Positions 9,912 to 29,987 of a DNA stretch of 64,000 bases are shown in pieces. Source of the stretch: Salinibacterium sp. SWN167 (lineage in GTDB: Bacteria; Actinomycetota; Actinomycetes; Actinomycetales; Microbacteriaceae). The notes beneath the pieces were generated by a model. That model searched no databases, was not told the DNA's origin, and was given only the letters and a program-made list of their open reading frames with translations. The position numbers and the translations under genes were made by a program. How positions within the stretch are numbered: the first letter of the stretch is position 1; every line of letters begins with the position of its first letter. The stretch lies in contig NZ_JADYWU010000001.1 of NCBI RefSeq assembly GCF_015864665.1, positions 1,426,001 to 1,490,000 of the forward strand, given 5' to 3'.

Positions 9912-9916
9912 TGTAG

Positions 9917-10321: not shown

Positions 10322-10356
10322 CGAAATACACCATCGAATTACAGGAGATCCACGAC

Positions 10357-11688: not shown

Positions 11689-11703
11689 ACCACTTCGCTT
11701 TAC

Positions 11704-11739: not shown

Positions 11740-11760
11740 TCGTTAACGGGCTGTTTCGCT

Positions 11761-12753: not shown

Positions 12754-12848
12754 TCGGCAATGCTAATGGTCAGGGGGAGCCTGCCGACACCGAGGCGACT
12801 GAGGGGAGTGGGGCGCCATAGTGCTGCAGTGGCAAGCGGTGGGTGACG

Positions 12849-13337: not shown

Positions 13338-13372
13338 TTGGCGAGCCTACAAGCAGCCTCTGGCGACGCGGT

Positions 13373-13390
13373 ACTTTGCCTAGGGCGAAC
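13373..13390. promoter_or_regulatory. Candidate ClgR-binding site upstream of clpP1P2
   Basis: The 18-mer ACTTTGCCTAGGGCGAAC fits the ClgR consensus I recall for corynebacteria (WNNWCGCYNANRGCGWWS) at every fixed position except one (TGC for CGC). It lies 67 bp upstream of clpP1. ClgR is the known activator of clpP genes in several actinobacteria; the site here is an inference from motif match and position. Confidence 0.55.
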
Positions 13391-13456
13391 ACGCCAGAAT
13401 AGCGGCGCGTACTCGGATAGATTCGTATCACGCGATAACTGAAATGGAGCGCAACA

Positions 13457-14062: not shown

Positions 14063-14064
14063 TT

Positions 14065-14757: not shown

Positions 14758-14790
14758 TGAGGCGGTCACCCCGATGGGGTGACCGCCTCA
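14758..14790. terminator. Strong hairpin between clpP2 and ureD (convergent terminator)
   Basis: A perfect 15-bp stem, 14758-14772 with 14776-14790, with the loop GAT. It lies 19 bp after the clpP2 stop and 6 bp after the ureD stop on the other strand, so it can end both the clpP transcript and the long minus-strand urease unit. Confidence 0.8.
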
Positions 14791-14795
14791 ACTCG

Positions 14796-15518
14796 TTACG
14801 CCAAGGCCCATTCTTGCCATACGGCGTCGAGCGGCGAGAGGTGGGTCTCTCTCCCCAGCCATCGCGCCAGACCACCCGGTTGTTCGAAATTGAGTACGAC
14901 CGCACCACGGTCGGCGGACGACGCAGGTGCCCGAGCCCCCGCGAGTAAAACAGTATCCATCACCCGTTCGGTACCAAGGTGACCCCAGATCGGTGAGCCT
15001 CCGTCAAAGTCCTGCTGCTCGACCAACACAGGGACAGATTTGGATGAGACACAGGTGCGGGTGACGACCCGGCCGCCGCTTTCCCCTTCGCGCCCTAAGA
15101 CGAGCGTTTCCCGGATCAGAGCGACAGCGCCGTCGTCCAAAGTGACGTCGAGAACTCGCTCGACGTGTGCGCCATCGGCGATGACGAACGGGAGCGTAGC
15201 CCACGACAGTTGCGCTCCAGCCTGCAGTCGGATCTGAATTCTCATGGAGGCGGACTGCCCCTCACCGTCGTATGCAACCATTCCGCCAATATCCTCGAGC
15301 GCGAGGCGGCAACCGGCACCGACCGTGATTTCGATGTTGATCGAGTCGCCGCCGAGTAACAGCGCGCCCCCGGCGACGAGCGCGACATCCGCCGACTGGT
15401 CCGTGCATGAGATGAGTCGCGGTATGAGTATTCCTGCCCTCAACTCCACGCGCGCGTTCCCGGACGCGTTCGCGTTTACCGAGACTCGCGTGACTCGCGA
15501 CGCGGCGTTGGACTGCAT
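14796..15518 (-). CDS. ureD: Urease accessory protein UreD
   Basis: Protein of 240 residues, the scaffold that binds apo-urease together with UreF and UreG during nickel-centre assembly. Family features seen are the central strand region LRAGILIPRLISC, GGALLLGGDSINIEITVGAGCRLALEDIGGMVAY (described here by its GGD and GAGC parts) and a LIRETLVLGREGESGGR segment. It is the last gene of the ureABCFGD set, 9 bp after ureG. Conservation is looser than for the structural subunits, as is normal for UreD. Confidence 0.88.
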   Translation of the reverse strand: MQSNAASRVTRVSVNANASGNARVELRAGILIPRLISCTDQSADVALVAGGALLLGGDSINIEITVGAGCRLALEDIGGMVAYDGEGQSASMRIQIRLQAGAQLSWATLPFVIADGAHVERVLDVTLDDGAVALIRETLVLGREGESGGRVVTRTCVSSKSVPVLVEQQDFDGGSPIWGHLGTERVMDTVLLAGARAPASSADRGAVVLNFEQPGGLARWLGRETHLSPLDAVWQEWALA

Positions 15519-15527
15519 ACGTGCGCC

Positions 15528-16295
15528 TTATGCTCTCACTGGGTGGTCGTGGTCGTGGTCGTGGTCGTGCTCTGAACTGGGACTGTGGGTGTGAACCACA
15601 GCTTGGCCGCCCTCATCGAGGTGACTATGCGGCGCCATCGGACCGGGGTCTTGGGGGCTGTGGGTTCCGGAGCGATAGGCGGCGAGCATTTCGAGCACCC
15701 ATAGCCGTAGCTGGGCAATCGAATTGTCATCCGTTCGCGACAGGGCAACAACAGGCCGACCTTCGCGCGCGTGAGTCGCGTCTGAGACCATCGTCTCCAC
15801 ATCAACGCCGACGTAGGGGGCGAGGTCTGTCTTGTTCACCACGAGTAGATCGGCGCGGGAGATGCCCGGGCCACCCTTGCGCGCGACGTCGCCGCCGCCG
15901 GCGACATCAAGCACGAAAATTTGCGCGTCGACGAGCGCAGGAGAGAACGTCGCGGTTAAGTTGTCACCGCCGGACTCGATGATGACGATGTCGAGGGGAG
16001 CGAAGTCGGCTTCAAGGTCTTCGGCAGCCAGCAGGTTCGCCGTCACGTCATCACGGATCGCTGTGTGTGGGCACGCGCCCGTCTCCACTGCGCGGATCCG
16101 TTCGGGATCCAGCACTCCAGCGGACCGTAGGAAGCGCGCATCCTCATCCGTGTAGATGTCGTTGGTGATGACACCGAGTCGCAGTTCCTCACCCAGAGAA
16201 CGACACAGAAGTGCGATGAGCGACGACTTTCCGGTTCCCACGGGACCGGCTATTCCCAGGCGTAGAGCGCGGGAGGGGGCGTTGTTTTCAAGCAC
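15528..16295 (-). CDS. ureG: Urease accessory GTPase UreG with C-terminal His-rich tail
   Basis: SIMIBI-class GTPase of 255 residues that drives nickel delivery to urease. The P-loop GPVGTGKSS is at residues 17-25; [13 protein letters not shown] carries the family's Cys-Pro-His nickel-binding motif, followed by ESGGDNL and the guanine-specificity motif NKTD. Beyond the normal end there is a tail with several His residues finishing in four His-Asp pairs, likely to bind nickel. No ureE is present, and this tail may take over part of its nickel-storage role (inference). The start overlaps the end of ureF by 8 bp. Confidence 0.95.
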
Positions 16296-16962
16296 GGAAC
16301 AACCTCTTCTTCATAACAGCGTGGGCCTCGGCCCACCCTTCGGCTTGCGGAGCGCCCAAGGCGGGGATCGCCTCAGGCGTGGTGATGAGCGAAAGCTGGT
16401 CGATAAACGGTTCGGCTGCCTCGCAGGCATTGAGCACCCATGTGACCACTGTGGCGGGGTCGATCGGGTCGAGCTTCAGCACAGCGGATGCCGCATTCTG
16501 AACCTCTTCGTAGACGACAAGACGAACCAGGTCGGCTGGCTTCATCTGGGTAGTTGCCGCGATCGCCCCGAGAACCACAGCCCGGGGCGGTTGCTTCAGC
16601 TGAGCGCAGAACGCAATCGACGCGCTGTGCGGCCACACGGTGCGGCCAATCCTTGTGTAGCCGCGTCCGAGGAGTCTGGACGCGTCGCGCAACGCCGGGC
16701 TCGGGGTTCTCGCCGCCCAGGCTGCGATTAGTGCGTCGATCTCCGACGGCGAGGCTTCGCTGATGAACTGATGCCGTGCCACCACCGCCGTTCCGGCTTC
16801 GACGAGTGTGGTCGACCGTGTTTTGCCGGCGAGGAACGAGGGGATGTCGTCTCGCTGAAGCCCGCCAAGCAAAGCAGGCTCCATTCCCGCCGAGTGAGTG
16901 TGCCCGCCGGTGGGCAGGCGCGCATCAGCGAGGAGCATCGCAAGCGTCCCCGAGTCGACCAT
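16288..16962 (-). CDS. ureF: Urease accessory protein UreF
   Basis: All-helical accessory protein of 224 residues that gates GTP hydrolysis by UreG within the UreDFG complex. It has the N-terminal [18 protein letters not shown] motif typical of UreF, and the downstream helices read through to [24 protein letters not shown]. Its ATG shares one base with the ureC stop (TAATG), indicating translational coupling. Confidence 0.93.
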
Positions 16963-18665
16963 TAGAACATCGTGTAGAGCTGAGCGAGAGGCAGAGTATC
17001 GACGGGAGCAGGCACGACAAGTTCGTCATCGATAGAAATCGCGAAGGTGTCTGGACGAATATCGATCTTCGGGAGCGTGTCATTGTTCTTCAGATCATGC
17101 TTGGTCACTTCCCGAGTGGACTGCACGGCGACAACGGTGCGCCCGAGGCCCATTCGTTCCTCAAAGCCGTCATCAATCGCAGCCTGCGCGAGGAACGAGA
17201 GTGAGAGCCGGTCTCCAATGGCATCCGCGAATGACGGTCGCATGAGCACCGGTTGCGGGGTGGGGATAGAGGCGTTGGGATCGCCGAGAGCGCCCCACGC
17301 TAAGCCGCCTCCCTTGATGACAACTTCGGGCCTAATGCCGAAGTATCGCGGATCCCACAGCACCAAGTCGGCCAGCTTGCCCGGCTCAATGCTCCCTACT
17401 TCTTTATCGATTCCGTGACCGATGGCGGGGTTGATTGTGTATTTAGCGATGTAGCGCCGTGCGCGCTCGTTGTCGGCCGGGTGCGCGGCGCCCAATGACC
17501 CACGCCGTGCCTTCATGACGTGGGCAACCTGCCACGTGCGGGAAACAACTTCACCGATTCGCCCCATTGCTTGGGAGTCAGACGACGTGATCGACAGTGC
17601 TCCGATGTCGTGGAGGATGTCTTCTGCCGCGATCGTTGTGGCACGGATTCTGGACTCCGCGAAAGCGAGATCCTCCGGAACCGACGCGTTCAAGTGATGG
17701 CACACCATCAGCATGTCGAGGTGTTCCGCCACAGTATTCGTGGTGTGGGGGAGCGTCGGGTTCGTTGATCCGGGGATGACATTGGGCAGAGAGGCGATCG
17801 ACAAAATGTCCGGGGCGTGACCACCGCCAGCACCTTCAACATGAAAAGCATGGATGCCACGCCCGGCGATCGCATCGATCGTGGACTGAACATAGCCCGC
17901 TTCGTTGAGGGAATCGGAGTGCAGCGCGACCTGAAGACCGAAGGTATCGGCCGCCTCCAGAGCCGCATTGATCGCTGCAGGCGTTGCGCCCCAATCCTCA
18001 TGAATCTTGAAACCACCAGCCCCGGCAAGGGCCTGTTCCTTGAGCGCCTCGGCTGAGACGGTGTTGCCTTTGCCCAATAGGAGCAAGTTGACTGGCAATC
18101 GATCCATTGCACGGTGCATGGTCTCGAGGTGCCACGCCCCCGGCGTGACAGTGGTTGCCTTTGATCCCTCGGACGGGCCCGTGCCACCGCCGACCACAGT
18201 GGTGATTCCGGTGGCGAGCGCTTCATGAATCTGAGAAGGGGAGATGAGGTGAACATGCGAATCAATACCGCCGGCGGTAAGGATGCGACCTTCTCCCGAG
18301 ATCACGTCGGTCGACGGACCGATCACGAGAAGGGGATGGACACCGTCGGCGATGTCAGGATTTCCTGCACGACCAAGCGCGACGATCCGTCCATTCCTGA
18401 TGCCGACATCCGCCCGCTGAATACCCCACCAGTCGAGCACGATGGCATTTGTGATCACGGTGTCTAGCGCACCCTCTGCACGAGTGCGCATGCCTTGAGC
18501 CATCGACTCACGAATCGATTTGCCGCCGCCGAATACCGCTTCTTCTCCGCCAACGGTCAGGTCTCGCTCGATTTCGATCCAGAGGTCGGTGTCGCCGAGG
18601 CGTATCTGGTCACCCGCAGTGGGACCATAGATTGCTGCGTAGCGCTGTCGGTCAATGGATACCAT
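16962..18665 (-). CDS. ureC: Urease alpha subunit (catalytic)
   Basis: Catalytic subunit of 567 residues, normal length, which hydrolyses urea to ammonia and carbamate with a di-nickel centre. Every metal ligand expected is present: His137 and His139 (SHVHL), carbamylated Lys220 ([10 protein letters not shown]), His249, His275 and Asp363, plus the flap cysteine Cys322 in MVCHHLN. Start ATG 18665 has AAGGAGC upstream and gives the normal [19 protein letters not shown] beginning; it overlaps ureB by 14 bp. An in-frame longer reading back to 18905 lies inside ureB and is rejected. Confidence 0.97.
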
Positions 18666-19002
18666 CGAGTTGCTCCTTGCCTGCATGCGAAATCTGGAGG
18701 CCGGGAATACGCCTCGCTCCTTGAATTGCCACCGCGTCGAGCTCTCGGGACGCGCCTGGTTCGAATCGTTGCGATGTGCCCGAGGGGATATCGAGCCGAA
18801 AGCCGTAGGCTGCGTCGCGGTCGAAGTGGAGGGCAGCATTGGCATCCGGCAGATGGAGATGAGATCCGATCTGGATTGGGCGATCGCCAGAATTGAGAAA
18901 GACAACGCGAATACGTTCCGCGTCCGTGCGGTCGGCGTTCAGCTCGATGCTTCCTGGGCGGACTCTAAAGGCGCCTGGCCCCTCGGAGCTTGCACTAGCC
19001 AT
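18652..19002 (-). CDS. ureB: Urease beta subunit
   Basis: Structural subunit of 116 residues with the family motifs [22 protein letters not shown] and [24 protein letters not shown]. It packs with UreA and UreC into the urease trimer-of-trimers. It is separate from ureA, the arrangement usual in most bacteria. The gene starts 14 bp after the ureA stop. Confidence 0.96.
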
Positions 19003-19016
19003 GATTTATCTCCCTC

Positions 19017-19319
19017 TTACTGGATGGGGTGATGCAAGGTGACGAGCTTGCGACCGTCGGGAAAAGTTGCTTCGACTTGAACGTCGCGGATCATGTCGGC
19101 GACACCGGGCATCACTTGGGCGCGCGTGAGCACCTCCCGGCCTTCGTCCATGAGGTCGGCGACGAGCGCGCCGTCGCGGGCGCGTTCGATTACCCAGCTA
19201 CTGAGCAACGCAATGCTCTCCGGGTAATTAAGGATGACCCCGCGGTCGAGTCGCTCCCGAGCGACCATCGCCGCAACGCTGAGCAATAGTTTTTCGGTAT
19301 CGGCAGGTGTGAGATGCAT
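19017..19319 (-). CDS. ureA: Urease gamma subunit
   Basis: Structural subunit of 100 residues, exactly the family length, starting [13 protein letters not shown] and including [28 protein letters not shown] described by its LMDEGR core. Start ATG 19319 shares a base with the stop of the nickel transporter gene (TGATG), so the transporter and urease are translationally coupled. The frame is open back to 19703, but that part is a shadow of the transporter gene. Confidence 0.96.
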
Positions 19320-20371
19320 CAGACGCCTTCTTTCATCATCGGCTGAGGAGTAACGAATGCAGAGGTGCGATCGCTGTGTGATCGTCCGATTGCCAGCACA
19401 ACAAGCCAGCCAACAAGGATGAGCCCCGCTAGTACGAAGCCAAGAGATGACACTTCGGCACCCGAGATCCAATTCAGTACACCCGCAGTTCCTCCGGATG
19501 CAGTAACCGCCGAAGCGAGCTGCACGACACCGACAACAACCGCGACGGTGACAGCGACGACAGTCATTCCGACGCTGAAGGCTCGTTGGACGCGTGAGGA
19601 GCGCGAGCCTGGTCGGTAAACGCGGCTCGCCATGAGGCCTTGAAGGGTATCCATCGCGGTCATTCCTGCTGCGAACAGAATGGGAAGCGCGAGCACAGCC
19701 CACAGCGAAGTAGACGAGAGAGCGGCTGCGCCCAACAGGACGAGAAGCCAGATCTCTGTGGCGGTATCGAGGCCGAGTCCGAACAACAGACCGACTACGT
19801 ACATTCGACTTGATCGATCCACAGCCTTATCGAAACGTCCGAGTAGCCAAGTGACGGGGCCACGAACTCCGTGACTATGGGAACGGGTGAGCGCAATAAT
19901 GTTGGCAGCGGCGATGACGAGCAGGAAGACTCCTGAGATCGTGGGGCCGTAGACAGTCGTGGTGAACTGAACCGCTGAGCCGTCAGCTGCCATGGCGGTT
20001 TCCAGTGCCTGCCCGAATGCCATAAGAAGCACGCACAGGACCGTGACGATCGTCGAATGCCCCAGCGCGAACCAAAAACCGACGGTGCCGCGCGCTTCGC
20101 GGGGCGACGTCGCGAGTCGTCGGGTCGTGTTGTCGATGGCGGCGATGTGATCGGCATCAAAAGCGTGACGAACTCCCAACGCGTAGGCGGTGAGCCCGAT
20201 TCCGAGAGCGACGGCCAACCCGCTCGCTGCGCCCGAGGAGTCCGCTGCTGACGGCGCGCTCGCGAGAACGAGCGCGCCGAACCCGACGACGTGGAGCGCA
20301 ACGATGGCACCGAGAACGCCCCAGGGGCGGTTCATGCGTGTGGTCGTGGCAGACCGTGACGGCAGGCTCAC
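19319..20371 (-). CDS. NiCoT-family nickel/cobalt transporter (HoxN/NixA type)
   Basis: Membrane permease of 350 residues that imports Ni2+ (and/or Co2+) at high affinity. It carries the NiCoT signature [14 protein letters not shown] (residues 68-81), with the His and Asp residues that contact the metal, plus FALGHSTIV and LGLDTATEI. About eight membrane helices are visible. The GTG start is 3 bp after the stop of the reductase gene, and the end overlaps ureA. Its position makes nickel for urease the evident purpose. Confidence 0.95.
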
Positions 20372-20374
20372 GAC

Positions 20375-21271
20375 TTATCCCTCGGTCTGATCGTCACTGC
20401 GACCGGAGAGTTCACTGACGAGGGTAAACAATGCCGAATGATCGAGGTCGCCGTCGCCGCGGGCTTTGAGCGAACCCATGAGCTGCGCCACCACGGCTCC
20501 GAGAGGAATAGCGACCCCCGCCTCCCGTGCCGCAGCCGTAACGATTCCCAAGTCTTTGTCGTGCAAGGTCACACGGAAGCCCGGTGCGAAGTTTCTGGAG
20601 AGCATGTTCGGAGCTTTCCGCGAGAGAACTGTGCTGCCGGCAAGACCTCCCGAAAGCACCTTCACTGCGGACTCCATGTCTACTCCGTGGGCTTCGAGGA
20701 AGACGAGAGCTTCGGCGACGAGTTCCATCGTGCCGGCCACGATGAGCTGATTTGCAGCCTTTACCGTCTGACCAGAACCTGACGGGCCCACGTGAACGAT
20801 CGTTGATCCAACAGCGTCGAAGACGGTGGAAGCCTGAGCGAAAGCCTCGGCTGATCCTCCGACCATGACGGATAGTGCACCCTCCACAGCTCCCGCCTCA
20901 CCACCCGAGACCGGCGCATCGAGCATATGAATCCCTGAGCTCGCTGCTTCTTCGGCCAACCGGATAGCAACATCCGGTCGGATCGTCGAAAAGTCGATGA
21001 CGAGGGTGCCCTGCGGCACACGTGCGAACACGCCGCTTTCGCCGCTCAATACAGACTCGACATCGGGGGAGTCCGGCAGCATCGTCACCACAATTTCGGC
21101 GCCGGCGATCGCTTCTTCGACGCTCTGTGCGCCTGACCCGCCCTGCGCAATGAACGTGTCGACGGCGGCACGGCTGCGGTTAAACCCTGTGACGTCGTGG
21201 CCAGCGGCAACCAAGTTGGCCGCCATAGGCGCGCCCATGATGCCGAGACCGATGAATGCAATTTTTGTCAT
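20375..21271 (-). CDS. 3-hydroxyisobutyrate-dehydrogenase-family reductase, tartronate semialdehyde reductase-like (GlxR/GarR)
   Basis: NAD(P)-dependent beta-hydroxyacid dehydrogenase of 298 residues. It has the Rossmann motif GLGIMGAPMAANL (residues 8-20), the substrate motif DAPVSGGEAGA (118-128) and the catalytic Lys171 in GQTVKAANQ. GlxR/GarR enzymes reduce tartronate semialdehyde to glycerate, and the neighbouring Hyi-like gene supports that reading. Reduction of malonate or methylmalonate semialdehyde cannot be excluded from sequence. Its start overlaps the Hyi-like gene by 4 bp (ATGA). Confidence 0.88.
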   Translation of the reverse strand: MTKIAFIGLGIMGAPMAANLVAAGHDVTGFNRSRAAVDTFIAQGGSGAQSVEEAIAGAEIVVTMLPDSPDVESVLSGESGVFARVPQGTLVIDFSTIRPDVAIRLAEEAASSGIHMLDAPVSGGEAGAVEGALSVMVGGSAEAFAQASTVFDAVGSTIVHVGPSGSGQTVKAANQLIVAGTMELVAEALVFLEAHGVDMESAVKVLSGGLAGSTVLSRKAPNMLSRNFAPGFRVTLHDKDLGIVTAAAREAGVAIPLGAVVAQLMGSLKARGDGDLDHSALFTLVSELSGRSDDQTEG

Positions 21272-22119
21272 AGTGAAGAACCTCTCGTTACTGAAACTGT
21301 GATCGATGGGAAATCATTGAGATTGGCGATGCTGGCTTGAGTGTCGCCAGTGGACGGCTTGTACTCGAGCGCGACCGCCCCGGTATAGCCCTGCTCGGTC
21401 AATTCGCTGAGATAGCGGTCTAGATCGAGCGTTCCGGAGCCGGGTTCTCCTCGGCCAGGGAAGTCCGCGATTTGTACATGCGCAACGGATGAGGCGTGAC
21501 TCTTGATAGCGGCTGAAACGTCATCCCCGTTCGCGGCTAAGTGGAAAATATCGAGCAAGAAAGCAACGTTGGAGTATCCGGATGCCCGGACGCGATCTAC
21601 CACCGCGATAGCGTCCGCCGCGGTACGCAGCGGATAAGGCTTGGGGCCGCTCACGGCTTCGATGAGCACTGTCGCCCCGATGGTGGCGGCAGCGTCGGCG
21701 GCAAAGCCGAGGCTCTGGATCGCGAGCTCATCCTGTGCTTCCGGAGTCGAGGTCTCGACTCGGTTTCCATAGAGCGCGTTGAACGCTCCCACGTTGAGGC
21801 GCGAACCGATGGCCGTTGCGATTTCCACGCTGTCGCGAAATTCTGCTTGGCGGTCGGGAAGAGAGAGGACACCGCAATCGGGCCCGAAAAGGTCACCAGC
21901 AAAGTAGTTGAGTCCGACAAGCTTCGCTCCGGAATCGTCAATAGCCCCGACAAACTTGTCGACGTCGCTATCAGTGGGCGAAGCAGAATCGAACGGCCAC
22001 CAATATTCGATCGAATCGAAACCAGCGTTATAGGCGGCGGCTGGCCGCTGGAGGAGGGGCAACTCCTGGAACAGCAGCGAGCAATTGGCGACGTAGGTGG
22101 AACGTTGGGGGGAGTTCAT
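21268..22119 (-). CDS. hyi: Hydroxypyruvate isomerase-like TIM-barrel protein
   Basis: AP-endonuclease-2-type TIM barrel of 283 residues. Motifs match hydroxypyruvate isomerase: LIEAVSGPKPYPL (catalytic Glu region), FLLDIFHLAANGDD, HVQIADFPGRGEPGSG and ALEYKPS. Hyi converts hydroxypyruvate to tartronate semialdehyde, the substrate of the reductase encoded next. In E. coli hyi and glxR lie together in the glyoxylate/allantoin gene set. No glyoxylate carboligase gene is seen here. Exact substrate is not proven; sugar-isomerase relatives share the fold. Confidence 0.8.
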   Translation of the reverse strand: MNSPQRSTYVANCSLLFQELPLLQRPAAAYNAGFDSIEYWWPFDSASPTDSDVDKFVGAIDDSGAKLVGLNYFAGDLFGPDCGVLSLPDRQAEFRDSVEIATAIGSRLNVGAFNALYGNRVETSTPEAQDELAIQSLGFAADAAATIGATVLIEAVSGPKPYPLRTAADAIAVVDRVRASGYSNVAFLLDIFHLAANGDDVSAAIKSHASSVAHVQIADFPGRGEPGSGTLDLDRYLSELTEQGYTGAVALEYKPSTGDTQASIANLNDFPSITVSVTRGSSL

Positions 22120-22128
22120 GCGATGTCC

Positions 22129-23007
22129 TTACTTGAGTCCGGAAGAAGCGAGGCCCTGCACGAAGAAGCGCTGAGCGAAGAGGAAGAGGAGGATCAGTGG
22201 CACTGTGGCCACAGCGGCGCCCGCGAACGTCAAGCCCCAGTTGGGCAGCTCACCCGCAGATACCGACTGGGCAATGGCGACCTGAATGACCTGATTCTGA
22301 GAACTTTGCACGACCGTCAACGGCCAGAGGAATGCGTTCCACGAGAACAAGAAGGTCACGAGGCACAGAGTTGCCAACGATGTGCGCACGTTGGGAAGGA
22401 TGATCGACCAGAACACCCGGAAGTGTCCTGCACCATCGAGTCGTGCCGCCTCATCCAACTCCATCGGGATCTCTTCGAAGGCTTGCTTCAGAAGGAAGAG
22501 CCCGAAAACGCTCGAGACCCAGGGAAGCGCGACAGCGAGGAGTGTGTCTTGCAGGTTGAGGCCAGCAATTACCCCATACATCGGCACGACAAGCGCTTCT
22601 GCCGGAAGCATGAATGTTGCGAGGATCACCGCGAAGACCACGCCGCGGCCCTTGAACGAAATTCTCGTCAACGCATAGGCAGCGAGGGTGCAGACCACCA
22701 GGGTGCCGCCCACTTGGATGAACGCGACGATGAGCGAATTGACGAGAGCGAGACCGATTCCTTTTTCGAAAAGCGCCACAAAGTTGTCGATCGTTCCGCC
22801 GACGGGAAGAAATACCTTCCACGAGAGCGGGTTGAGATCATCGAAGATCGCGGTCTGATTTTTGAATGCAGACGACACCATCCAGAGGTAGGGCAGGAGG
22901 AATGCGCCCACGATGATGGCAATCACTACAAACGAGACGCCGAAGCGAGCGATAGTCATGGGGAGTCGGCGAAGCTGATGTGGTTCCGCTATGCGTTGAG
23001 TAGTCAT
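22129..23007 (-). CDS. Carbohydrate-type ABC transporter permease (MalG family)
   Basis: Inner-membrane permease of 292 residues with six predicted helices. The cytoplasmic EAA loop that docks the ATPase reads EIPMELDEAARLDGAGHFRVFW. It ends with the family-typical QRFFVQGLASSGLK. It partners the MalF-type permease 9 bp upstream and the binding protein gene before that. No ATP-binding subunit is encoded nearby, so a shared MsiK-type ATPase from elsewhere is likely (inference). Confidence 0.93.
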   Translation of the reverse strand: MTTQRIAEPHQLRRLPMTIARFGVSFVVIAIIVGAFLLPYLWMVSSAFKNQTAIFDDLNPLSWKVFLPVGGTIDNFVALFEKGIGLALVNSLIVAFIQVGGTLVVCTLAAYALTRISFKGRGVVFAVILATFMLPAEALVVPMYGVIAGLNLQDTLLAVALPWVSSVFGLFLLKQAFEEIPMELDEAARLDGAGHFRVFWSIILPNVRTSLATLCLVTFLFSWNAFLWPLTVVQSSQNQVIQVAIAQSVSAGELPNWGLTFAGAAVATVPLILLFLFAQRFFVQGLASSGLK

Positions 23008-23016
23008 GGCGTCCTC

Positions 23017-23976
23017 CTAATAGTTCCAACGAGTGCGAAGTAGCCGCATCTGGATCAAGCTGATGATGATGGCGAAAGCAAGCACGACGAGCGCCATTGC
23101 GGAGGCGTAGCCCGGCTGCTGAAGAATGAACGCCGTCTTGTAGATGTGATAAATGATGAGGTTCGTCGTGCCCTGAGGGGCGCCACCCGTCATGATGTAC
23201 GCCGGCGCAAATGCTTGGAGTGCGAAGACAGTCATCACTACGACAATGAACAGGGTCGTGCGGGAGAGCAGCGGAAGAGTGATGCTGAGCGTGCGACGGA
23301 GGGGCCCGGCTCCATCCATATGTGCTGCCTCGCTGAGCTCGGCGGGAACTGCTTGCAGTCCACCGAGAAAGAGAACGGTTGCCAGGCCCACTTGTTGCCA
23401 GACGGTCATCACGATGATGGCGGGGAGTGCTTGGGTGGTGTCGGTGAGAAAACCTGCGGACGGAATTCCAACTGTCGCGAGCACCGAGTTGATCAACCCC
23501 GTCTCATTGAGCAGGAACGTCCAGAGTGTCGCGACGACAACCGACGAGGTGACAACGGGAAGAAAGATCATGGTGCGTACGAGAGCCCGAGCGGGCAGCT
23601 TGCCGTTGAGAAAAACCGCCAGTGCGAAGGACGCAGGGACGACAAGAACAAGGACACCGAGAATGAACGCGAACGTGATCAGCAGCGACTGGATTGTCTC
23701 TGCATCCGTGAAGATCCGGATGAAGTTGTCCGCACCGACGAAGGTTGCGTTGTCGGGGCTGAAAAGGCTGTAGTCGAGCACGCTGCTGCGAGCCATGACT
23801 GCCAGCGGAATGTATTGAAAGACCAGCAGAAGCAGAAGGAACGGGGTGAGGAAGGCAAGCGCAGGTAGTGCGCCCTTCCCCATCGCGCTCTTCGATCTGC
23901 GCCTGGGCGGAAGCGAAGTGCTTCCGCCCAGGTCTCTGACCGCGAGCGGCGTGGAATCGATCGGGCCAGAATGCAT
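23017..23976 (-). CDS. Carbohydrate-type ABC transporter permease (MalF family)
   Basis: Permease of 319 residues with about six membrane helices after a basic cytoplasmic N-terminus (PPRRRSKSAMGK). The EAA loop is VPAELSEAAHMDGAGPLRR, and the IMTGGAPQGTTNLIIYHIY segment is typical of MalF-type proteins. It lies between the binding protein gene (16 bp gap) and its MalG-type partner. The family name does not fix the substrate: related systems also carry nucleosides or other polar compounds. Confidence 0.93.
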   Translation of the reverse strand: MHSGPIDSTPLAVRDLGGSTSLPPRRRSKSAMGKGALPALAFLTPFLLLLLVFQYIPLAVMARSSVLDYSLFSPDNATFVGADNFIRIFTDAETIQSLLITFAFILGVLVLVVPASFALAVFLNGKLPARALVRTMIFLPVVTSSVVVATLWTFLLNETGLINSVLATVGIPSAGFLTDTTQALPAIIVMTVWQQVGLATVLFLGGLQAVPAELSEAAHMDGAGPLRRTLSITLPLLSRTTLFIVVVMTVFALQAFAPAYIMTGGAPQGTTNLIIYHIYKTAFILQQPGYASAMALVVLAFAIIISLIQMRLLRTRWNY

Positions 23977-23992
23977 GACGATGTTTCCTGTT

Positions 23993-25315
23993 CTACTTCG
24001 AGAGGATCGGGTCGAGCTTGGCGACTGCCTGATCGAGCTCAGTCTTCGGATCCGCTCCGTAAGCGATGTTCTTCAGCGCTGCAGTCACGTAGAGGTCATA
24101 CGCGTCGAAGTGCGGTCCGGGAGGACGCGGTACGCCCCACTCCTGGATCTCTTCGACGGGAATGTTCAACGGTGCTTCGCTGAGCGAAGGCAGTGCTTCG
24201 GTCGTCGACACCAACACTGGAATCCGGAGGTTGTTCTCAACCCAGTCGAGGTACTGGTCACCGGTGTCCATAGCGACAACGGCCGTGGCCGCGGCCTCCG
24301 CGTTGTTCGAACGTGCGGTGACGCCGAATGTCACAGCGCCGGTGTGCACAACAGGGGTAACGAGATACGGCGTCGGGCTCACACCGAAGTCCACTCCCGC
24401 GTTAGTAAGAGTCGTAGCGTTGGAGCTCACTTCGAGGTCGAAGCACGCCTTGCCATCGATCAGCGCATTGGGAAGACCAGTCTTCGACGTCACAGCATCC
24501 GGGCCTTCGAACAAGTTCTGGTAGAAGGTCGCACCCTCGATAGCTTCAGGCGTGTTCAGCCAGCCATCGACAGTGGTTCCGTCGTCAGAGATTGCATAGA
24601 ACGTCTTGTACGCCGATGATGACTCAGGAGCAGTGGGGTCTCCCATGCTGCGCAAGAAGAGCTGATCGCGGTACGACGTTCCCGGGGTGCCGTCTCCGAG
24701 TCGTGACGGTGCGAGACCGTACACGGTCGACCCAGCAGCCTCGGTTGCCGATACCTGGCAGGTCAGCATTGCGGCTTGCGCCTCTGGCCATGTCCACGCG
24801 GTGTCAAGAGAGGTGGGAGGTGTGATGCCGGCTGCATCAGTCAGCTCCTTGTTGAAGTACAAGGAGAGAGTGTCTTGCTCGTTGCCGGGCGAGTAAACCT
24901 GGCCGTCCCACGAGTTCTCTGTCAACGTCGCTGACGTCACGTCGTCAAACCAGCCATCGGGCAGGTAATCGTCAAGGGGAAGCAAGAAGCCCTGCGATGC
25001 GTAGGACGCGGTGCTTGGAGCGTCGAATCCGACAATGTCTGGCGGGTTCGACGACGGCGCGAGTACCGCGATCTTTGCTGCCAAGTTGCCGAACGGAACT
25101 TCGTCCACGGTGAAAATGACGCATTTGTTGGCGGCTGTGTAGGCATCCAATTGCTCGTCAGTGGGGGAGTTGTTTTCTGCGCGGAGTACGGAGAGTTCCG
25201 TTACGCCGTCCTCGCAGCCTGCGATGGTGGGGGTGGAGCCGGCAGAACATCCGGCGAGAGCCATAATGGCTACCGTCCCGACCGCCGTGCTCAGTGTTGC
25301 GATGTTGCGTTTCAT
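23993..25315 (-). CDS. ABC transporter extracellular solute-binding lipoprotein (family 1)
   Basis: Binding protein of 440 residues. A signal peptide leads to the lipobox LAGC (Cys23), so the mature protein is lipid-anchored outside the membrane. The body has the family 1 pattern (NSWDGQVYSPGNEQDTLSLYFNKELTDAAG, seen as its YFNKEL core). Two extra Cys pairs or singles occur (Cys after TIAG, NKCVIF, LTCQV, KACFDL), unusual for this family. Start ATG 25315 has AAGGGA upstream. The ligand is probably the compound handled by the co-encoded hydrolases. Confidence 0.92.
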   Translation of the reverse strand: MKRNIATLSTAVGTVAIMALAGCSAGSTPTIAGCEDGVTELSVLRAENNSPTDEQLDAYTAANKCVIFTVDEVPFGNLAAKIAVLAPSSNPPDIVGFDAPSTASYASQGFLLPLDDYLPDGWFDDVTSATLTENSWDGQVYSPGNEQDTLSLYFNKELTDAAGITPPTSLDTAWTWPEAQAAMLTCQVSATEAAGSTVYGLAPSRLGDGTPGTSYRDQLFLRSMGDPTAPESSSAYKTFYAISDDGTTVDGWLNTPEAIEGATFYQNLFEGPDAVTSKTGLPNALIDGKACFDLEVSSNATTLTNAGVDFGVSPTPYLVTPVVHTGAVTFGVTARSNNAEAAATAVVAMDTGDQYLDWVENNLRIPVLVSTTEALPSLSEAPLNIPVEEIQEWGVPRPPGPHFDAYDLYVTAALKNIAYGADPKTELDQAVAKLDPILSK

Positions 25316-25367
25316 TGTTTTCCCTTGCTTAGGTGGAGCGAAATATTCGAAACGTGAAGAGCAGTGG

Positions 25368-26327
25368 TTATCGCTGGATAGAGACACACTCCTTCAGCAG
25401 TCGATAGAAGACGTCAGCGTTCGCCGTCAATGCGACGTAGGCGTTCGGTTCTTCTATGCCTCGGTGACGAACGTCGATAACAGTCCTGCCGAAGGTGCGC
25501 ACTCCTGTTGTCTCGATGCCGACGTGAAGGTGGTTAAGAGGAAGGACAGCGGGGTCGAGCAGATACGCGATGCAGACGGCATCGTGAATGGGGGCGCTGT
25601 CGGGAATCGCCTGTGGCTGGCTTTCATCGTGGGCGACGATGCGCTGTTGGATACAGATCGCGGTCGCCAGACCAGCGGGGGTACTGAGAGCGTGAAGCTC
25701 GGATGCCTGTGCTCCGGTGACGAGTGCGTCGTGCGTCGCGTCGAGGGGAACCAGAACAACTCGCTTGAAGCCGGCTTTGAAAACGACGTCAGCAGCTACG
25801 GGGTCATGCCAGATGTTCGATTCTGCCGACGGCGTTGCGTTGCCGAAAGCGTGCGCGCCACCCATGATGACGATCTCGTCGACCTTCTCGATGATCGAGG
25901 GGTCGAGGGTGATCGCAGCCGCGATGTTTGTCAGTGGACCGACTGGCACCAGCGTGATGGGTTCAGTACGAGCTCGCAGCGTCTCGACTAACCACTCGAC
26001 AGCGCCCTGCGTTTGAGCAACCGAGGTGGCGGGCGGGAGGTCGAGCTCCTTCGGGTGCATCTTTCCGCCGCTGTGATCGTCCGAAGGGCTGGGCTGCGGT
26101 ACGCCGATAGGGCCGAATGGCTCATCGAGTCCCCGATAGACAGGGATGTCGGAGCGGTTGATGTAGTCGAGCACGCGAAGCGTGTTGTCAGTCGTATTCT
26201 CGACCGGACGATTGCCCCACACGGTGGTGCACGCAACGAGGTCGATCTCTGGCGATAGCGCTGCCATCATGATTGCAATCGCGTCGTCAGTTCCTGTGTC
26301 GACATCGAGGATGATTGACCGTGGCAT
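25368..26327 (-). CDS. Nucleoside hydrolase (IunH family), complete active site
   Basis: Ribonucleoside hydrolase of 319 residues. The DVDTGTDDA motif (residues 8-16) binds calcium and the ribose hydroxyls; MGGAHAFGNATPSAESNIW (seen by its MGG and SESNIW-like parts) and the C-terminal His248-Asp249 in PIHDAVCIAYLLDP complete the site. It is a clear paralogue family member of the gene at 11797-12753, which lacks the His. Here it lies in the LacI-controlled unit between the amidohydrolase and the ABC importer, suggesting that a riboside is the imported compound. AAGGAG precedes the ATG. Confidence 0.92.
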   Translation of the reverse strand: MPRSIILDVDTGTDDAIAIMMAALSPEIDLVACTTVWGNRPVENTTDNTLRVLDYINRSDIPVYRGLDEPFGPIGVPQPSPSDDHSGGKMHPKELDLPPATSVAQTQGAVEWLVETLRARTEPITLVPVGPLTNIAAAITLDPSIIEKVDEIVIMGGAHAFGNATPSAESNIWHDPVAADVVFKAGFKRVVLVPLDATHDALVTGAQASELHALSTPAGLATAICIQQRIVAHDESQPQAIPDSAPIHDAVCIAYLLDPAVLPLNHLHVGIETTGVRTFGRTVIDVRHRGIEEPNAYVALTANADVFYRLLKECVSIQR

Positions 26328-26362
26328 GTAATGTGCTCCTTCTTGGTTGGTGATGATGAGGA

Positions 26363-27790
26363 TCAGACCGCGAGTGCGGGGTCTGTCCGGAAGCGATCGT
26401 TCAGCATTTCTCCACGGAAGTCCTCGCGTGGGAACTCGCCGTCAGCGAAGACGACGACGCCGCCGCATACGGTCACGCTCGGCCACATCCGCAATGTCAT
26501 GCCGGCGTAGGGCGAGTAATCGATGGGCGAGTGAAGATCTTCGATCCGTACGACTCGCTCACCTTCCTCAAGGATGACGAGGTCGGCATCCATACCGATT
26601 GCGACCTTGCCTTTGCCTTCGAGACCGAATCTCACGGCGGCATTGCGCGAGGTGAGTTCGATGAGGCTTTCCATGCTCATGCCGTTGTCCACGACAAGGT
26701 GCGTCAAGAGCAGCGGGAGCATGAGGCCGATACCGGGCAATCCAGGCTTGGAAGTTTCCCAGTCAGTTTTTGCGGCGCTTGGCCATTCGTTGTGGTCGGA
26801 TCCGAAGAAATCGATCTCGCCCGCGAGAACTGCCTCGGTAATGGCGTCGGAAAGACTGCGGTCGCGGATGGGCGGGGCAACTTTGCCCTCCGGACCAATT
26901 GCCGACTCAGTGCTGAGCACCATGTAGTGGACGCATGATTCGAGCGCCGCTCCCGGGTACCCCAGAGCCCTCCGAGCTTTGATGGCTTCCAAGCTGGAGA
27001 CGTGCACGATCGATACTTGGCAGCCTGCTTCTTCGGCAAGGTAGAGAGCAGTCCACGCGGCGTCCCCTTCGGCGATGGTGGGGCGCGAACGTTCCCACCC
27101 TGCGAGTGAGTCGAGCCCCGCGGTGCTCTCCGTTTGCATCGCCGCGTCGACGATGTCGCCGTCCTCGGCGTGTACCAACGCTTGAGCGCCGTTCGCGACG
27201 ATCGCGGCGAAGGCTTCCCGCATTTGCGCGTGGTTGAGGCTTCCGATTCCGCCGAGGTTCTTGGCCTCTTCACCCCGGTAGGGCATGAAGATCTTGAAGG
27301 TGCGCATGCCTTCCTTGGTCGCCTGTTCGATTTCCGAAACCTGGCCCATATTCATGAGGCAGCCGTGGAACATCACATTGATCTGAGACTGAGCGCGTGC
27401 TGCGGCAAGACCATCGTGGAACGAGTCAAGAAGCGACGGGGTGCCGAACTGTACGTAGTTGAGCGCAGTCGTGCAGCCACCGGCCAGTGCGCCGCGCGAC
27501 TCAGCGGAGAAGTTGTCGTCCGGACCAAGGCCGGGAATGTGGTTGTATTCGTCGGCGCGCTGGTTGATGTGAGCGTGGGAATCGATCGCGCCGGGAATCA
27601 CCCAGCGGCCCGCAGCATCTGTGGTTTCGGCCGCGTAGCCCAGATCTTGCAGGTTGCTCGACATCGCGACGATGACGCCGCCCTTGATGCCGATGTTGTA
27701 AAGCGCGTCGTCGTCGGAACGAATCTTTGCGTTCGCGATGACGAGGTCAAGCTGCTCGGCAGGCGCGAAGGCGCTGTGATCGTGGGACAT
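26363..27790 (-). CDS. Cyclic amidohydrolase of the dihydroorotase/hydantoinase/allantoinase superfamily
   Basis: Metal-dependent ring-opening amidohydrolase of 475 residues. Ligands of the binuclear site are all present: His72 and His74 (DSHAHIN), carbamylated Lys166 (TFKIFMPY), His207 (LVHAEDGD), His263 (IVHVSS) and Asp332 (GSDHNEW). The pattern fits hydantoinase, dihydropyrimidinase or allantoinase; sequence alone does not pick among them. Start ATG 27790 overlaps the upstream stop (TAATG); an ATG five codons earlier is possible. It probably opens a cyclic ureide or dihydropyrimidine ring to an N-carbamoyl product. Confidence 0.88.
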   Translation of the reverse strand: MSHDHSAFAPAEQLDLVIANAKIRSDDDALYNIGIKGGVIVAMSSNLQDLGYAAETTDAAGRWVIPGAIDSHAHINQRADEYNHIPGLGPDDNFSAESRGALAGGCTTALNYVQFGTPSLLDSFHDGLAAARAQSQINVMFHGCLMNMGQVSEIEQATKEGMRTFKIFMPYRGEEAKNLGGIGSLNHAQMREAFAAIVANGAQALVHAEDGDIVDAAMQTESTAGLDSLAGWERSRPTIAEGDAAWTALYLAEEAGCQVSIVHVSSLEAIKARRALGYPGAALESCVHYMVLSTESAIGPEGKVAPPIRDRSLSDAITEAVLAGEIDFFGSDHNEWPSAAKTDWETSKPGLPGIGLMLPLLLTHLVVDNGMSMESLIELTSRNAAVRFGLEGKGKVAIGMDADLVILEEGERVVRIEDLHSPIDYSPYAGMTLRMWPSVTVCGGVVVFADGEFPREDFRGEMLNDRFRTDPALAV

Positions 27791-28617
27791 TACTGTGCCA
27801 TCCATTCAGTCTTCAGATAATCGGTGTCTAGGTAACGTTCGGAAAGTTGCGTGCGGTACCACTCGTCTCGCTCTGCTTCATCGAGGGCTCGGTACTCCCG
27901 CCACAGGAGTCCGATGGCTACCCCGGCGTAAAGCTGGTAGTCGAGAACATGGGCGAGCGCCTCGTGGTCGTTCAGGAGTGCGTCGGCGCTTTCCGCGGTG
28001 AGCGTTTGAGGGGCCAACGTGACGAAGTCAGCGAAAGCTGCGCTCTCGACCGCTGCGAGTGAGTCAACGTGGGGTCGTCCTTCTGGGCGGGAATCGACGT
28101 ACGTCACGAGATCGTCGTACAGGTCGAGCCATTGGCTCCGTTGAGGCTCATCGAGCCAGAGTGCAGAGCTGAAGAGCATGAGGGCGTGGTGTCGGATCAT
28201 TGTGTAGTCGTCCACGAGCCCGTCGAGCTGAATCTGAAGAATGTCGTTTGTGATCGACATTTGGATGCGGCTGGTGTCGGTCAGCAATGTGCGGTACGAC
28301 GGGTTCGCGTCGAGCACGGGAGCGTAAGCGATCTCGATGAGTCGGAGAAAGAATGCTGCATTGGGAAGATGCCAAATGCGGCGAACTTCTTGGCTCGAGT
28401 CCAACCACGTCAACATGAAGTTTCCGAAAGTCCAGTCAGCCTCGTCGTCGGCGAGGACACCGACGACCTCGGCGCGATGCGCAACGGGCCCCGCTAAGGA
28501 GAGCAGGTGATCAGAATGCGACTGGGCCTTCGCTACCCACGCTGGCACATCAGCCGTGACAACGGGGGCACAGGTTGGTGCGTGGTGGTGAGGCGAGGGG
28601 AGTGAGGAAAGAGCCAC
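27790..28617 (-). CDS. Orphan protein, first gene of the nucleoside/ureide-urease unit
   Basis: Protein of 275 residues, family not recognised. It is mostly helical and acidic with no signal peptide or membrane helix, so probably cytoplasmic. Notable parts are a His run near residues 10-12 (SPHHHAPTCAP), WTFGNFMLTWLDSSQE, MIRHHALMLFSSALW and the C-terminal WREYRALDEAERDEWY. GTG start follows AAAGGAACC. It is the first gene after the LacI-type operator and its stop overlaps the amidohydrolase start. Its place suggests a catalytic or regulatory step specific to this pathway (inference). Confidence 0.75.
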   Translation of the reverse strand: MALSSLPSPHHHAPTCAPVVTADVPAWVAKAQSHSDHLLSLAGPVAHRAEVVGVLADDEADWTFGNFMLTWLDSSQEVRRIWHLPNAAFFLRLIEIAYAPVLDANPSYRTLLTDTSRIQMSITNDILQIQLDGLVDDYTMIRHHALMLFSSALWLDEPQRSQWLDLYDDLVTYVDSRPEGRPHVDSLAAVESAAFADFVTLAPQTLTAESADALLNDHEALAHVLDYQLYAGVAIGLLWREYRALDEAERDEWYRTQLSERYLDTDYLKTEWMAQ

Positions 28618-28673: not shown

Positions 28674-28689
28674 ATCTACGCGGGTAGAT
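28674..28689. promoter_or_regulatory. LacI-type operator O1 at the operon start
   Basis: ATCTACGCGGGTAGAT, with perfect 6-bp arms (ATCTAC/GTAGAT) around the centre GCGG. It begins six bases downstream of the -10-like box of the leftward promoter, so a bound repressor would cover the transcription start. The same 14-bp core occurs in inverted orientation at 28822-28835. Confidence 0.7.
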
Positions 28690-28819: not shown

Positions 28820-28835
28820 GCCTACCCGCGTAGAT
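28820..28835. promoter_or_regulatory. LacI-type operator O2 upstream of the regulator gene
   Basis: GCCTACCCGCGTAGAT on the plus strand; its reverse complement shares the 14-base core ATCTACGCGGGTAG with O1. Centre-to-centre distance to O1 is 146 bp, close to 14 helical turns, which would allow a DNA loop (inference). Confidence 0.7.
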
Positions 28836-28970
28836 ATTTTTCGGGTAAAGTGATTTTTCTTTAGCCATCCACCCTGGATTGCGACATGATCGTTTATGCG
28901 GCGTGTGCGCCGTCAACGTGCTTTGAACGGCACAGGGGAAAGCACTGCTGAACGGGGAATCGGATACACC

Positions 28971-29987
28971 GTGGTAACCAGAGACGATGTTGCTCGCGAA
29001 GCGGGAACCTCTACTGCCGTTGTCAGTTACGTCATGAACAACGGCCCCCGCAATGTTGCGGCGCCGACGAAACAGCGTGTGCTCGATGCGGTCGCTCGGC
29101 TCGGTTACCGCCCTAATGCCACTGCTCGTGCTTTGGCCTCAGCTTCCAGCACGGTATTGGGGCTGATCGCTTCGGACATCACCAACCCCTACTGCAGCGA
29201 GCTTGCCATCGAGGTGGAGAACTCCGCACTTGCCCGTGGCCATTCTCTGCTGCTCGGAAACGCCATGAATAGCGATGAGAGGCAAGCACGCCACCTTCGG
29301 TCGTTCATGGAGCACCAAGTGCGCGGGATTCTCTTCGTCGGAAGCACGGACGAGCGTCGTTCAAGTCATGAAGAGACGTCTAGTGTGCTTGAGGGCAACC
29401 ACACACCACTCGTGTTTTTCGACCGCCCGGCAAGCGAGCTTGGAGCGACCGCGATACTGGTCGACAACCGTGGTGGAGGTTTCGCCGCCACCTCTCACCT
29501 ACTCGACCACGGGTACGAATCCGTTGCGTGTTTCTCTGGCCCGGCGCACCTGTATGGAGTCAGCGACCGACTAGCCGGGTGGGGCGATGCTCTCAAGGCA
29601 AAGGGTATGAAGGTCGACGACCACGAGGTATTCGAGAGCGAATTCGATCGCTACAGCGCTTTCGCGCTCGCACGGGATATTTTTGCGCGACCCACGCGCC
29701 CGCGGGCAATCTTCGTCCATAGTGATGAGCAAGCGTTCGGAATCATGACCGCGGCGACGCAAGCGGGGCTCAGCATTCCCGAGGACCTGGCGCTCATTTC
29801 TTTCGATGGGCTCAAGGAATCGAGCATCGTCTTGCCCCGCCTCACGACCGTCCAGCAACCGTTCCACACTGCGGCCTCGCTCGGGGTGGATGTTCTTCTT
29901 GACGCAACTCCGGGTTCTCAAGAAGCGCCCCACAATCGTGTTCTTCCGCTGGACCTCACCATTCGTGAAAGTTGCGGCTGCAGATAA
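28971..29987 (+). CDS. LacI-family transcriptional regulator
   Basis: Repressor-type regulator of 338 residues. The N-terminal helix-turn-helix reads TRDDVAREAGTSTAVVSYVMN, followed by the hinge helix NATARALASASS and a periplasmic-binding-protein-like ligand domain (LGLIASDITNPYCSELAIEVE, seen as its SDITNPY core). I prefer the GTG start at 28971 because LacI proteins begin just before the helix-turn-helix; an in-frame ATG at 28896 would add 25 residues. It is divergent from the catabolic unit and the likely reader of the two operators. Effector unknown. Confidence 0.92.
   Translation: MVTRDDVAREAGTSTAVVSYVMNNGPRNVAAPTKQRVLDAVARLGYRPNATARALASASSTVLGLIASDITNPYCSELAIEVENSALARGHSLLLGNAMNSDERQARHLRSFMEHQVRGILFVGSTDERRSSHEETSSVLEGNHTPLVFFDRPASELGATAILVDNRGGGFAATSHLLDHGYESVACFSGPAHLYGVSDRLAGWGDALKAKGMKVDDHEVFESEFDRYSAFALARDIFARPTRPRAIFVHSDEQAFGIMTAATQAGLSIPEDLALISFDGLKESSIVLPRLTTVQQPFHTAASLGVDVLLDATPGSQEAPHNRVLPLDLTIRESCGCR

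What the first reader, a model, noticed from the sequence alone, without database searches (positions are those of the whole stretch)
14796..28617. A 15-gene unit joins nucleoside hydrolase, cyclic amidohydrolase and importer to nickel uptake and urease
All fifteen minus-strand genes from 28617 to 14796 are packed with gaps of at most 52 bp and eight or so overlaps, including TGATG between the nickel transporter and ureA and ATGA between the Hyi-like and reductase genes. They run from a promoter with LacI operators to a strong hairpin at 14758-14790. Order: orphan protein, amidohydrolase, nucleoside hydrolase, binding protein, two permeases, Hyi-like isomerase, GlxR-like reductase, NiCoT, ureA, B, C, F, G, D. 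Putting urease and its nickel supply under a catabolic regulator suggests the pathway itself makes urea. A riboside or cyclic ureide would be imported, stripped of ribose, ring-opened and cut to urea plus a C2/C3 acid handled by Hyi and GlxR. Allantoin-type catabolism is the nearest known model, but allantoicase, ureidoglycolate lyase and glyoxylate carboligase are not seen.
Basis: partly seen in the sequence, partly recalled or inferred. Interest (0 to 1): 0.85.

Follow-up and report, generated by a model that had tools for sequence, protein, structure and literature searches.

The report
Urease wired into a ureide-breakdown operon
An actinobacterium carries fifteen packed genes under what looks like one dedicated switch that appear to import a ring-shaped nitrogen compound, open the ring, split it into urea and a three-carbon acid, and finish both, using one enzyme of unknown kind and a route that does not match the known one for allantoin.

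Summary
Fifteen minus-strand genes (28617-14796) are packed with gaps of at most 52 nt and six overlaps, from a LacI-type operator pair to a strong terminator hairpin. An ORFan gene and a hydantoinase/dihydropyrimidinase-like amidohydrolase are an adjacent pair in nine genomes (six lineages); urease is on the same contig in five of the six. Exact matches to a 14-nt operator occur at two sites per genome, only at this locus, in 7 of 7 genomes carrying the LacI. In four relatives one site precedes an NMT1/THI5-type importer and one the ORFan; urease lies behind it in two gene orders.

The nucleoside hydrolase and sugar-type importer are add-ons of the window's clade, so the shared substrate is probably the free ring compound. 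Allantoin is unlikely: no allantoicase and no glyoxylate carboligase in this genome, and Pseudonocardia carries an alc-hyi-glxR-gcl cluster apart from this module.

Best model: the amidohydrolase opens a pyrimidine-like ureide, the ORFan (no Pfam, no significant PDB fold match) releases urea plus tartronate semialdehyde/hydroxypyruvate, Hyi/GlxR make glycerate, urease uses the urea. Elemental balance points to uracil glycol or 5-hydroxyuracil. The substrate and the ORFan's reaction are inferred, not shown.

The parts
27790..28617 (-). ORFan protein, 275 aa; proposed ureido-acid cleaving enzyme (urea-releasing)
   Evidence: No Pfam/NCBIfam hit at E<=0.001; next to the amidohydrolase in 9 genomes; AlphaFold pLDDT 78.8, pTM 0.81, 0 PDB fold matches at E<=0.001; codon pattern of purifying selection
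26363..27805 (-). cyclic amidohydrolase, hydantoinase/dihydropyrimidinase/allantoinase superfamily; proposed ring opener
   Evidence: metal ligands H77 H79 K171 H212 H268 D337 and Tyr176 kept
25368..26327 (-). nucleoside hydrolase, nearest solved relatives are pyrimidine-specific (YeiK/RihB/RihA)
   Evidence: found only in the window clade G000/G197/G599 among the loci scanned
23993..25315 (-). solute-binding protein SBP_bac_1 with a lipobox-like start (ORF opens at 25387 with GTG; ATG at 25315)
23017..23976 (-). ABC permease 1 (UgpA-like)
22129..23007 (-). ABC permease 2 (UgpE-like); no ATPase gene in the unit
21268..22119 (-). hydroxypyruvate isomerase-like (Hyi)
   Evidence: TIGR03234 231.5 bits, below its cut-off 353.45
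20375..21271 (-). tartronate semialdehyde reductase (GlxR)
   Evidence: TIGR01505 345.8 bits, over its cut-off 340.75
19319..20371 (-). NiCoT nickel transporter
   Evidence: PF03824 155 bits
19017..19319 (-). ureA (urease gamma), start overlaps NiCoT stop (TGATG)
18652..19002 (-). ureB
   Evidence: conserved between ureA and ureC in relatives; not itself scanned against Pfam
16962..18665 (-). ureC; only Urease_alpha match in the genome
16288..16962 (-). ureF
15528..16295 (-). ureG (His-rich tail)
14796..15518 (-). ureD
28896..29987 (+). LacI-family regulator, divergent
   Evidence: 59-61% identical relatives beside the module in G607, G613, G614, G617
28674..28689 (.). operator 1 (palindrome around CTACGCGGGTAG)
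28822..28835 (.). operator 2 (CTACCCGCGTAGAT)
14758..14790 (-). terminator-type hairpin between ureD and the convergent clpP2

Best explanation
A LacI-controlled operon for a cyclic pyrimidine-type ureide, taken up in this clade as its N-riboside. Steps: (1) import by the SBP_bac_1 system (inferred from families; in relatives an NMT1/THI5-type importer takes the free ring compound); (2) the nucleoside hydrolase removes ribose (inferred from family); (3) the amidohydrolase opens the ring to a 3-ureido acid (active site shown by alignment, substrate inferred); (4) the ORFan splits the ureido acid into urea and tartronate semialdehyde or its tautomer hydroxypyruvate, like a ureidoglycolate lyase but with a C3 acid (inferred by elimination: it is the unassigned gene that always sits next to the amidohydrolase); (5) Hyi and GlxR convert these to glycerate; (6) NiCoT-supplied urease turns urea into ammonia. 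The ring compound that balances without any extra redox step is uracil glycol (C4H6N2O4 + H2O -> urea + C3H4O4) or its dehydrated form 5-hydroxyuracil (C4H4N2O3 + 2 H2O), as riboside uridine glycol or 5-hydroxyuridine. I put the general scheme at about 0.5 and this particular substrate at about 0.22.
For: ORFan-amidohydrolase pair in 9 genomes, same order. Operator: exact matches at 2 sites per genome in 7 of 7 LacI carriers, 0 in the 3 other genomes searched (G598, G615, G616); reversed-pattern control 2 matches over the same 10 genomes. Sites lie before the ORFan and before the NMT1 importer in G607, G613, G614 and G617. In G614 urease follows the importer operon instead of the amidohydrolase operon, so urease is behind the operator in two arrangements. 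Urease in 8 of 8 carriers tested but over cut-off in only 5 of 27 genomes of the genus, 4 of them being the 4 carriers; the fifth, G598, has its urease beside a Urt-type urea importer. No carboligase over cut-off in G000 (best 397 bits, cut-off 711) and in 8 of 9 carriers, so GlxR must get its substrate another way. GlxR passes its family cut-off; relatives add a D-2-hydroxyacid dehydrogenase, which fits a tartronate semialdehyde/hydroxypyruvate pool. The amidohydrolase keeps the Tyr seen in two D-hydantoinases (1nfg FMAYRG, 4tqt FMAYKG) and not in the aligned allantoinase 3e74 (FKCFVATCG). Nucleoside hydrolase closest to pyrimidine-specific enzymes.
Against: No enzyme, ligand or transcript data. 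Hyi is below its family cut-off and not found in L014, L018 or L019; GlxR is below cut-off in L009 and L019. In Pseudonocardia urease is in the genome but not within the 17 kb locus. L019 adds alcohol dehydrogenase, enoyl-CoA hydratase and CoA-transferase genes that the scheme does not use. The top-scoring solved relative of the amidohydrolase, L-hydantoinase 1gkr, lacks the Tyr, and several relatives outside the clade keep it, so the Tyr is a weak pointer. The co-occurrence p = 2.8e-4 ignores that three of the four carriers are close kin. The carriers' UreC set apart from G598 has only 82/87 support. Several carriers are incomplete MAGs, so absences there are weak. A urea importer in G000 was not sought, so external urea is not excluded as a second use. 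The ORFan's enzymatic role rests on position alone; a partner or structural role is possible.
Confidence: 0.5

Rival explanations
1. Allantoin (or allantoin riboside) catabolism with the ORFan as a non-homologous allantoicase/ureidoglycolate lyase, giving two urea and glyoxylate.
For: Allantoinase models hit the amidohydrolase (TIGR03178 225 bits, cut-off 358); Hyi and GlxR are 57% and 66% identical to those beside allantoicase and Gcl in Pseudonocardia.
Against: No Gcl over cut-off and no allantoicase in G000, so glyoxylate would not feed GlxR; Pseudonocardia keeps alc-hyi-glxR-gcl at another place as well as the ORFan module; the amidohydrolase-like stretch just before that allantoicase is only 29% identical (not itself confirmed as an allantoinase). 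PF04115 ureidoglycolate lyase was not sought genome-wide.
Confidence: 0.15
2. Plain reductive pyrimidine degradation: uridine to uracil to dihydrouracil, with the amidohydrolase as dihydropyrimidinase.
For: Pyrimidine-type nucleoside hydrolase; dihydropyrimidinase models hit; NMT1/THI5 importers in relatives.
Against: PreA-type dihydropyrimidine dehydrogenase over cut-off in 0 of 8 carriers (over cut-off in 2 of 14 control genomes); this route yields no urea (general knowledge) and leaves urease, Hyi and GlxR unexplained; amidohydrolase far below dihydropyrimidinase cut-offs (231.6 of 647, 218.8 of 393).
Confidence: 0.1
3. 5-Hydroxyhydantoin or another hydantoin (as riboside) opened to ureidoglycolate, cleaved to urea and glyoxylate by the ORFan, glyoxylate reduced or used elsewhere.
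For: Redox-neutral, two hydrolytic or lyase steps; the best solved relatives include hydantoinases; relatives carry a glyoxylate/hydroxypyruvate-reductase-like gene.
Against: No such dehydrogenase homologue in the 64 kb window, and without Gcl the Hyi-GlxR pair has no substrate from glyoxylate.
Confidence: 0.15
4. Urease is only a neighbour: a nitrogen-scavenging urease operon that happens to follow the catabolic genes and reads through from them.
For: Urease is patchy in this genus (5 of 27 over cut-off) and one locus (G598) looks built for external urea.
Against: Linkage in two gene orders behind the same operator; 3-nt gap and 1-nt overlap at the junctions in the window; presence in 8 of 8 carriers tested.
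Confidence: 0.1

Closest known systems
Allantoin cluster with alc-hyi-glxR-gcl (seen in Pseudonocardia, L048)
   Same: Hyi and GlxR homologues (57% and 66% identical); a cyclic amidohydrolase and urea as product in the known pathway (recalled).
   Different: No allantoicase, no Gcl over cut-off in this genome; urease and NiCoT built in; ORFan next to the amidohydrolase; LacI; riboside front end.
Reductive pyrimidine pathway (PreAT/dihydropyrimidinase/ureidopropionase)
   Same: Amidohydrolase superfamily.
   Different: No PreA over cut-off; product inferred to be urea, which that pathway does not make (recalled).
Oxidative pyrimidine pathway via barbiturate (barbiturase/ureidomalonase) - recalled, not searched
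   Same: Two hydrolytic steps giving urea and a C3 acid from a C4 ureide.
   Different: Gives malonate, for which Hyi and GlxR have no use; barbiturase is of a different fold (recalled).
Urease locus of G598 (same genus) beside a Urt-type importer
   Same: Homologous urease, UreC 78% identical.
   Different: Coupled to a branched-chain/urea-type ABC importer (the label Urt is recalled), not to ring-opening genes.

Membership tests
Allantoin degradation to glycerate | allantoicase (PF03561) | tested here: not met
   0 matches in G000; 1 of 8 carriers in all, Pseudonocardia, at another place (0 of 14 control genomes rang)
Allantoin degradation to glycerate | glyoxylate carboligase (TIGR01504 over cut-off) | tested here: not met
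   G000 397 of 711 bits; over cut-off in 1 of 9 carriers, Pseudonocardia (1 of 14 controls)
Allantoin degradation to glycerate | allantoinase at equivalog level | tested here: not met
   TIGR03178 225.4, cut-off 357.85; NF004839 229.2, cut-off 631
Allantoin degradation to glycerate | ureidoglycolate lyase (PF04115) | not tested
   no genome search left; none among the window genes scanned
Reductive pyrimidine pathway | PreA-type dihydropyrimidine dehydrogenase | tested here: not met
   0 of 8 carriers over cut-off
Reductive pyrimidine pathway | dihydropyrimidinase at equivalog level | tested here: not met
   TIGR02033 218.8, cut-off 393.25
Cyclic amidohydrolase superfamily | HxH, carboxylated Lys, two His and Asp metal ligands (positions recalled from the family) | tested here: met
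   H77 H79 K171 H212 H268 D337 in the six clade rows aligned
Pyrimidine-type nucleoside hydrolase | IU_nuc_hydro domain with N-terminal Asp cluster and catalytic His, nearest to RihA/RihB | tested here: met
   PF01156 265 bits; DVDTGTDD and PIHDA retained in the alignment; specificity not tested
Functional urease operon | ureABC plus accessory F, G, D and nickel supply | tested here: met
   gene content only; no ureE among the genes scanned; activity not tested
LacI regulon | palindromic operators tied to presence of the regulator | tested here: met
   2 sites per genome in 7 of 7 carriers of this LacI; 0 in G598, G615, G616, whose loci lack it (genome-wide absence of the LacI not searched); binding not tested

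The most novel reading that the evidence does not exclude
A new catabolic pathway for oxidised uracil: uridine glycol or 5-hydroxyuridine (free base in relatives) is split by two hydrolytic/lyase steps, the second by a new enzyme family of unknown fold, into urea and tartronate semialdehyde, with a built-in nickel-urease to recover the nitrogen.
Probability: 0.22. Interest if true: 0.85.

Novelty: new variant of a known kind. Interest (0 to 1): 0.6.

Why it matters
If right, it gives oxidatively damaged or modified uracil a microbial fate and a first enzyme for it, shows urease serving as an internal step of a pathway under a dedicated catabolic switch rather than as a scavenger of external urea, and defines a new protein family with a directly testable reaction. 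The two-gene core (ORFan plus amidohydrolase) is small enough to express and assay directly.

Tried and rejected
Rejected: allantoin reading, reductive uracil reading. The Rfam 5'ureB sRNA hit on the + strand inside ureC (18220-18515, 62 bits) I take for conserved coding sequence, not a gene; not tested. ORFan against PDB sequences: nothing at E<=10; against PDB folds: 97 weak matches at E<=10 (50 shown), 0 at E<=0.001, best E 0.59, read as no match. ORFan in plasmids: none at E<=1e-5. Wide searches were thin: amidohydrolase at E<=1e-60 in 3 of 199 family genomes, namely G000, G197 and a 37% relative; at E<=1e-75 in 1 of 396 phylum genomes, the own one, and in 4 of 27 of the genus; ORFan in 2 of 199 and 1 of 396. 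The family and phylum samples are drawn evenly from larger groups. Of the 14 loci, L013, L016 and L017 are the same contigs as L011, L010 and L009 by length; L023-L026 (weak or short matches) were not scanned for the ORFan; L021, L022 and L012 were scanned and have none. An empty site between clpP2 and clpX in non-carriers was not sought. The second fold aligner (pdb_via) was not available; the viral fold library was not tried. Literature: ten searches of the held library, seen as search listings with abstract openings only; five of them listed nothing; one more query was invalid (72). No paper was opened. None of the listings describes such a pathway, which is not proof that none exists.


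Full report
What is there. The window lies in a 3.0 Mb, 99.9% complete genome. Gaps are at most 52 nt and six junctions overlap. A hairpin of -37.9 kcal/mol (z -8.2) closes the unit before the convergent clpP2. The gap to the divergent LacI gene holds two operator-like palindromes.

Which genes belong together. The ORFan and the amidohydrolase are adjacent, in the same order, in nine genomes, which are all those found with an amidohydrolase at about 50% identity or more: G000, G197, G599, G607 (L009), G613 (L014), G614 (L015/L051), G615 (L018, Pseudonocardia CNS-004), G616 (L019) and G617 (L020). In L018 both genes are split by frame shifts, and in L020 the contig ends inside the amidohydrolase. 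Counting G000/G197/G599 as one and G613/G617 as one (a judgement from near-identical ORFans), they make six lineages. The rest of the module: GlxR in five of six (G614's contig ends before its place could be seen); Hyi in the window clade, G607 and, cut by the contig end, G614; a D-2-hydroxyacid dehydrogenase in G607, G613, G614, G615 and G616; an NMT1-type ABC importer in the same five lineages. Only the window clade has the nucleoside hydrolase and the SBP_bac_1 importer. No homologue of the NMT1 protein or of the dehydrogenase was found in the 64 kb window or in L010 and L011; the rest of the genome was not searched for them. I infer that relatives import the free ring compound and the window clade its riboside.

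Urease and regulator. Urease is on the same contig in the window clade, G607, G613, G614 and G616, and in the genome in 8 of 8 carriers tested (G617 was not in that search). In G614 urease follows the importer genes, not the amidohydrolase genes. In the genus 5 of 27 genomes have urease over cut-off, and 4 of these are the 4 carriers of the amidohydrolase (Fisher p 2.8e-4, uncorrected for kinship). The fifth, G598, has urease beside a Urt-type importer. UreC of the window clade, G607, G613 and G614 stands apart from G598's with modest support, 82/87. Exact matches to CTACNCGNGTAGAT lie at two sites in each of seven genomes with this LacI (21 strand matches, 14 sites), all at this locus, and at none in G598, G615 and G616; the reversed pattern gave two matches over the ten genomes. 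In G607 and G614 one site lies between NMT1 and lacI and one just before the ORFan; in G613 and G617 one lies before NMT1 and one before the ORFan. In the window both lie between lacI and the ORFan. So the regulator looks dedicated to the importer, ring-opening and urease genes.

What the enzymes can do. The amidohydrolase keeps the metal ligands and a Tyr seen in D-hydantoinases, forms a clade 49-99% identical inside and at most 37% outside among the twelve sequences compared, and is far below the equivalog cut-offs shown (25 of 56 families shown). GlxR passes its cut-off; Hyi does not. The nucleoside hydrolase is closest to pyrimidine-specific YeiK, RihB and RihA. The ORFan has no Pfam or NCBIfam hit, no PDB sequence relative, and a mostly helical AlphaFold model (pLDDT 78.8, pTM 0.81, from 8 sequences) without a significant fold match. 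Invariant residues among the 8 rows include R117, N124, D125, Q128, R142, H144, E191 and Y227.

Why not allantoin or plain uracil. Gcl is not over cut-off in G000 and is so in only 1 of 9 carriers; allantoicase is found in 1 of 8. Both exceptions are Pseudonocardia, where alc-hyi-glxR-gcl stand together on a 178 kb contig, not the 163 kb contig of L018. PreA is over cut-off in 0 of 8. Several carriers are incomplete MAGs; the weight lies on G000.

The proposed reaction. Without Gcl, GlxR and Hyi need tartronate semialdehyde or hydroxypyruvate made directly. Urea (CH4N2O) plus tartronate semialdehyde (C3H4O4) less one water is C4H6N2O4, uracil glycol; less two waters is C4H4N2O3, 5-hydroxyuracil. 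Both are pyrimidine ureides, occur as ribosides through RNA modification or oxidation (recalled), and need no redox step, which matches a core of one hydrolase and one unassigned gene. Opening uracil glycol would give a carbinolamide, the C3 analogue of ureidoglycolate, whose cleavage to urea and an aldehyde acid is known chemistry (recalled). This part is inference. Other C4H4N2O3 isomers, such as 5-formylhydantoin, fit equally by formula.

Limits. No transcript or assay; few lineages; MAG contigs; the ORFan's role rests on position. Literature searches of the held library returned no such pathway (listings; nothing listed in 73, 74, 91 and 107), but most subscription papers are not held.

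Noticed in passing
window 13457-14739 and 32201-33478: clpP1-clpP2 lie directly downstream of the cluster's terminator and clpX just beyond the lacI, CopC and DUF1775 genes, so the whole unit sits between clpP2 and clpX, usually close neighbours in Actinobacteria (recalled). It may be an insertion.
   Followed up: partly
window 11797-12753: A second nucleoside hydrolase gene (PF01156, 287 bits; about 35% identical to the operon's) lies 2 kb beyond the cluster, minus strand, outside the unit.
   Followed up: no
window 18220-18515 (+): Rfam 5'ureB sRNA hit (62 bits, gathering score 40) antisense to ureC; probably conserved coding sequence.
   Followed up: no
window 2852-8290 (-): A 1812-aa open frame without any Pfam match at E<=0.001.
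   Followed up: no
L052 (G598) 3619-13419: In a same-genus genome urease stands beside a Urt-type urea ABC importer instead: two alternative urease uses within one genus.
   Followed up: partly
L049/L019 (G616): The most distant module has an amidase directly before ureA, and enoyl-CoA hydratase and CoA-transferase genes after the amidohydrolase; their role is unexplained.
   Followed up: no
L014 1388-3003 (G613): A pterin-binding (DHPS-like) gene and a RibD_C reductase gene stand beside the D-2-hydroxyacid dehydrogenase of the module.
   Followed up: no
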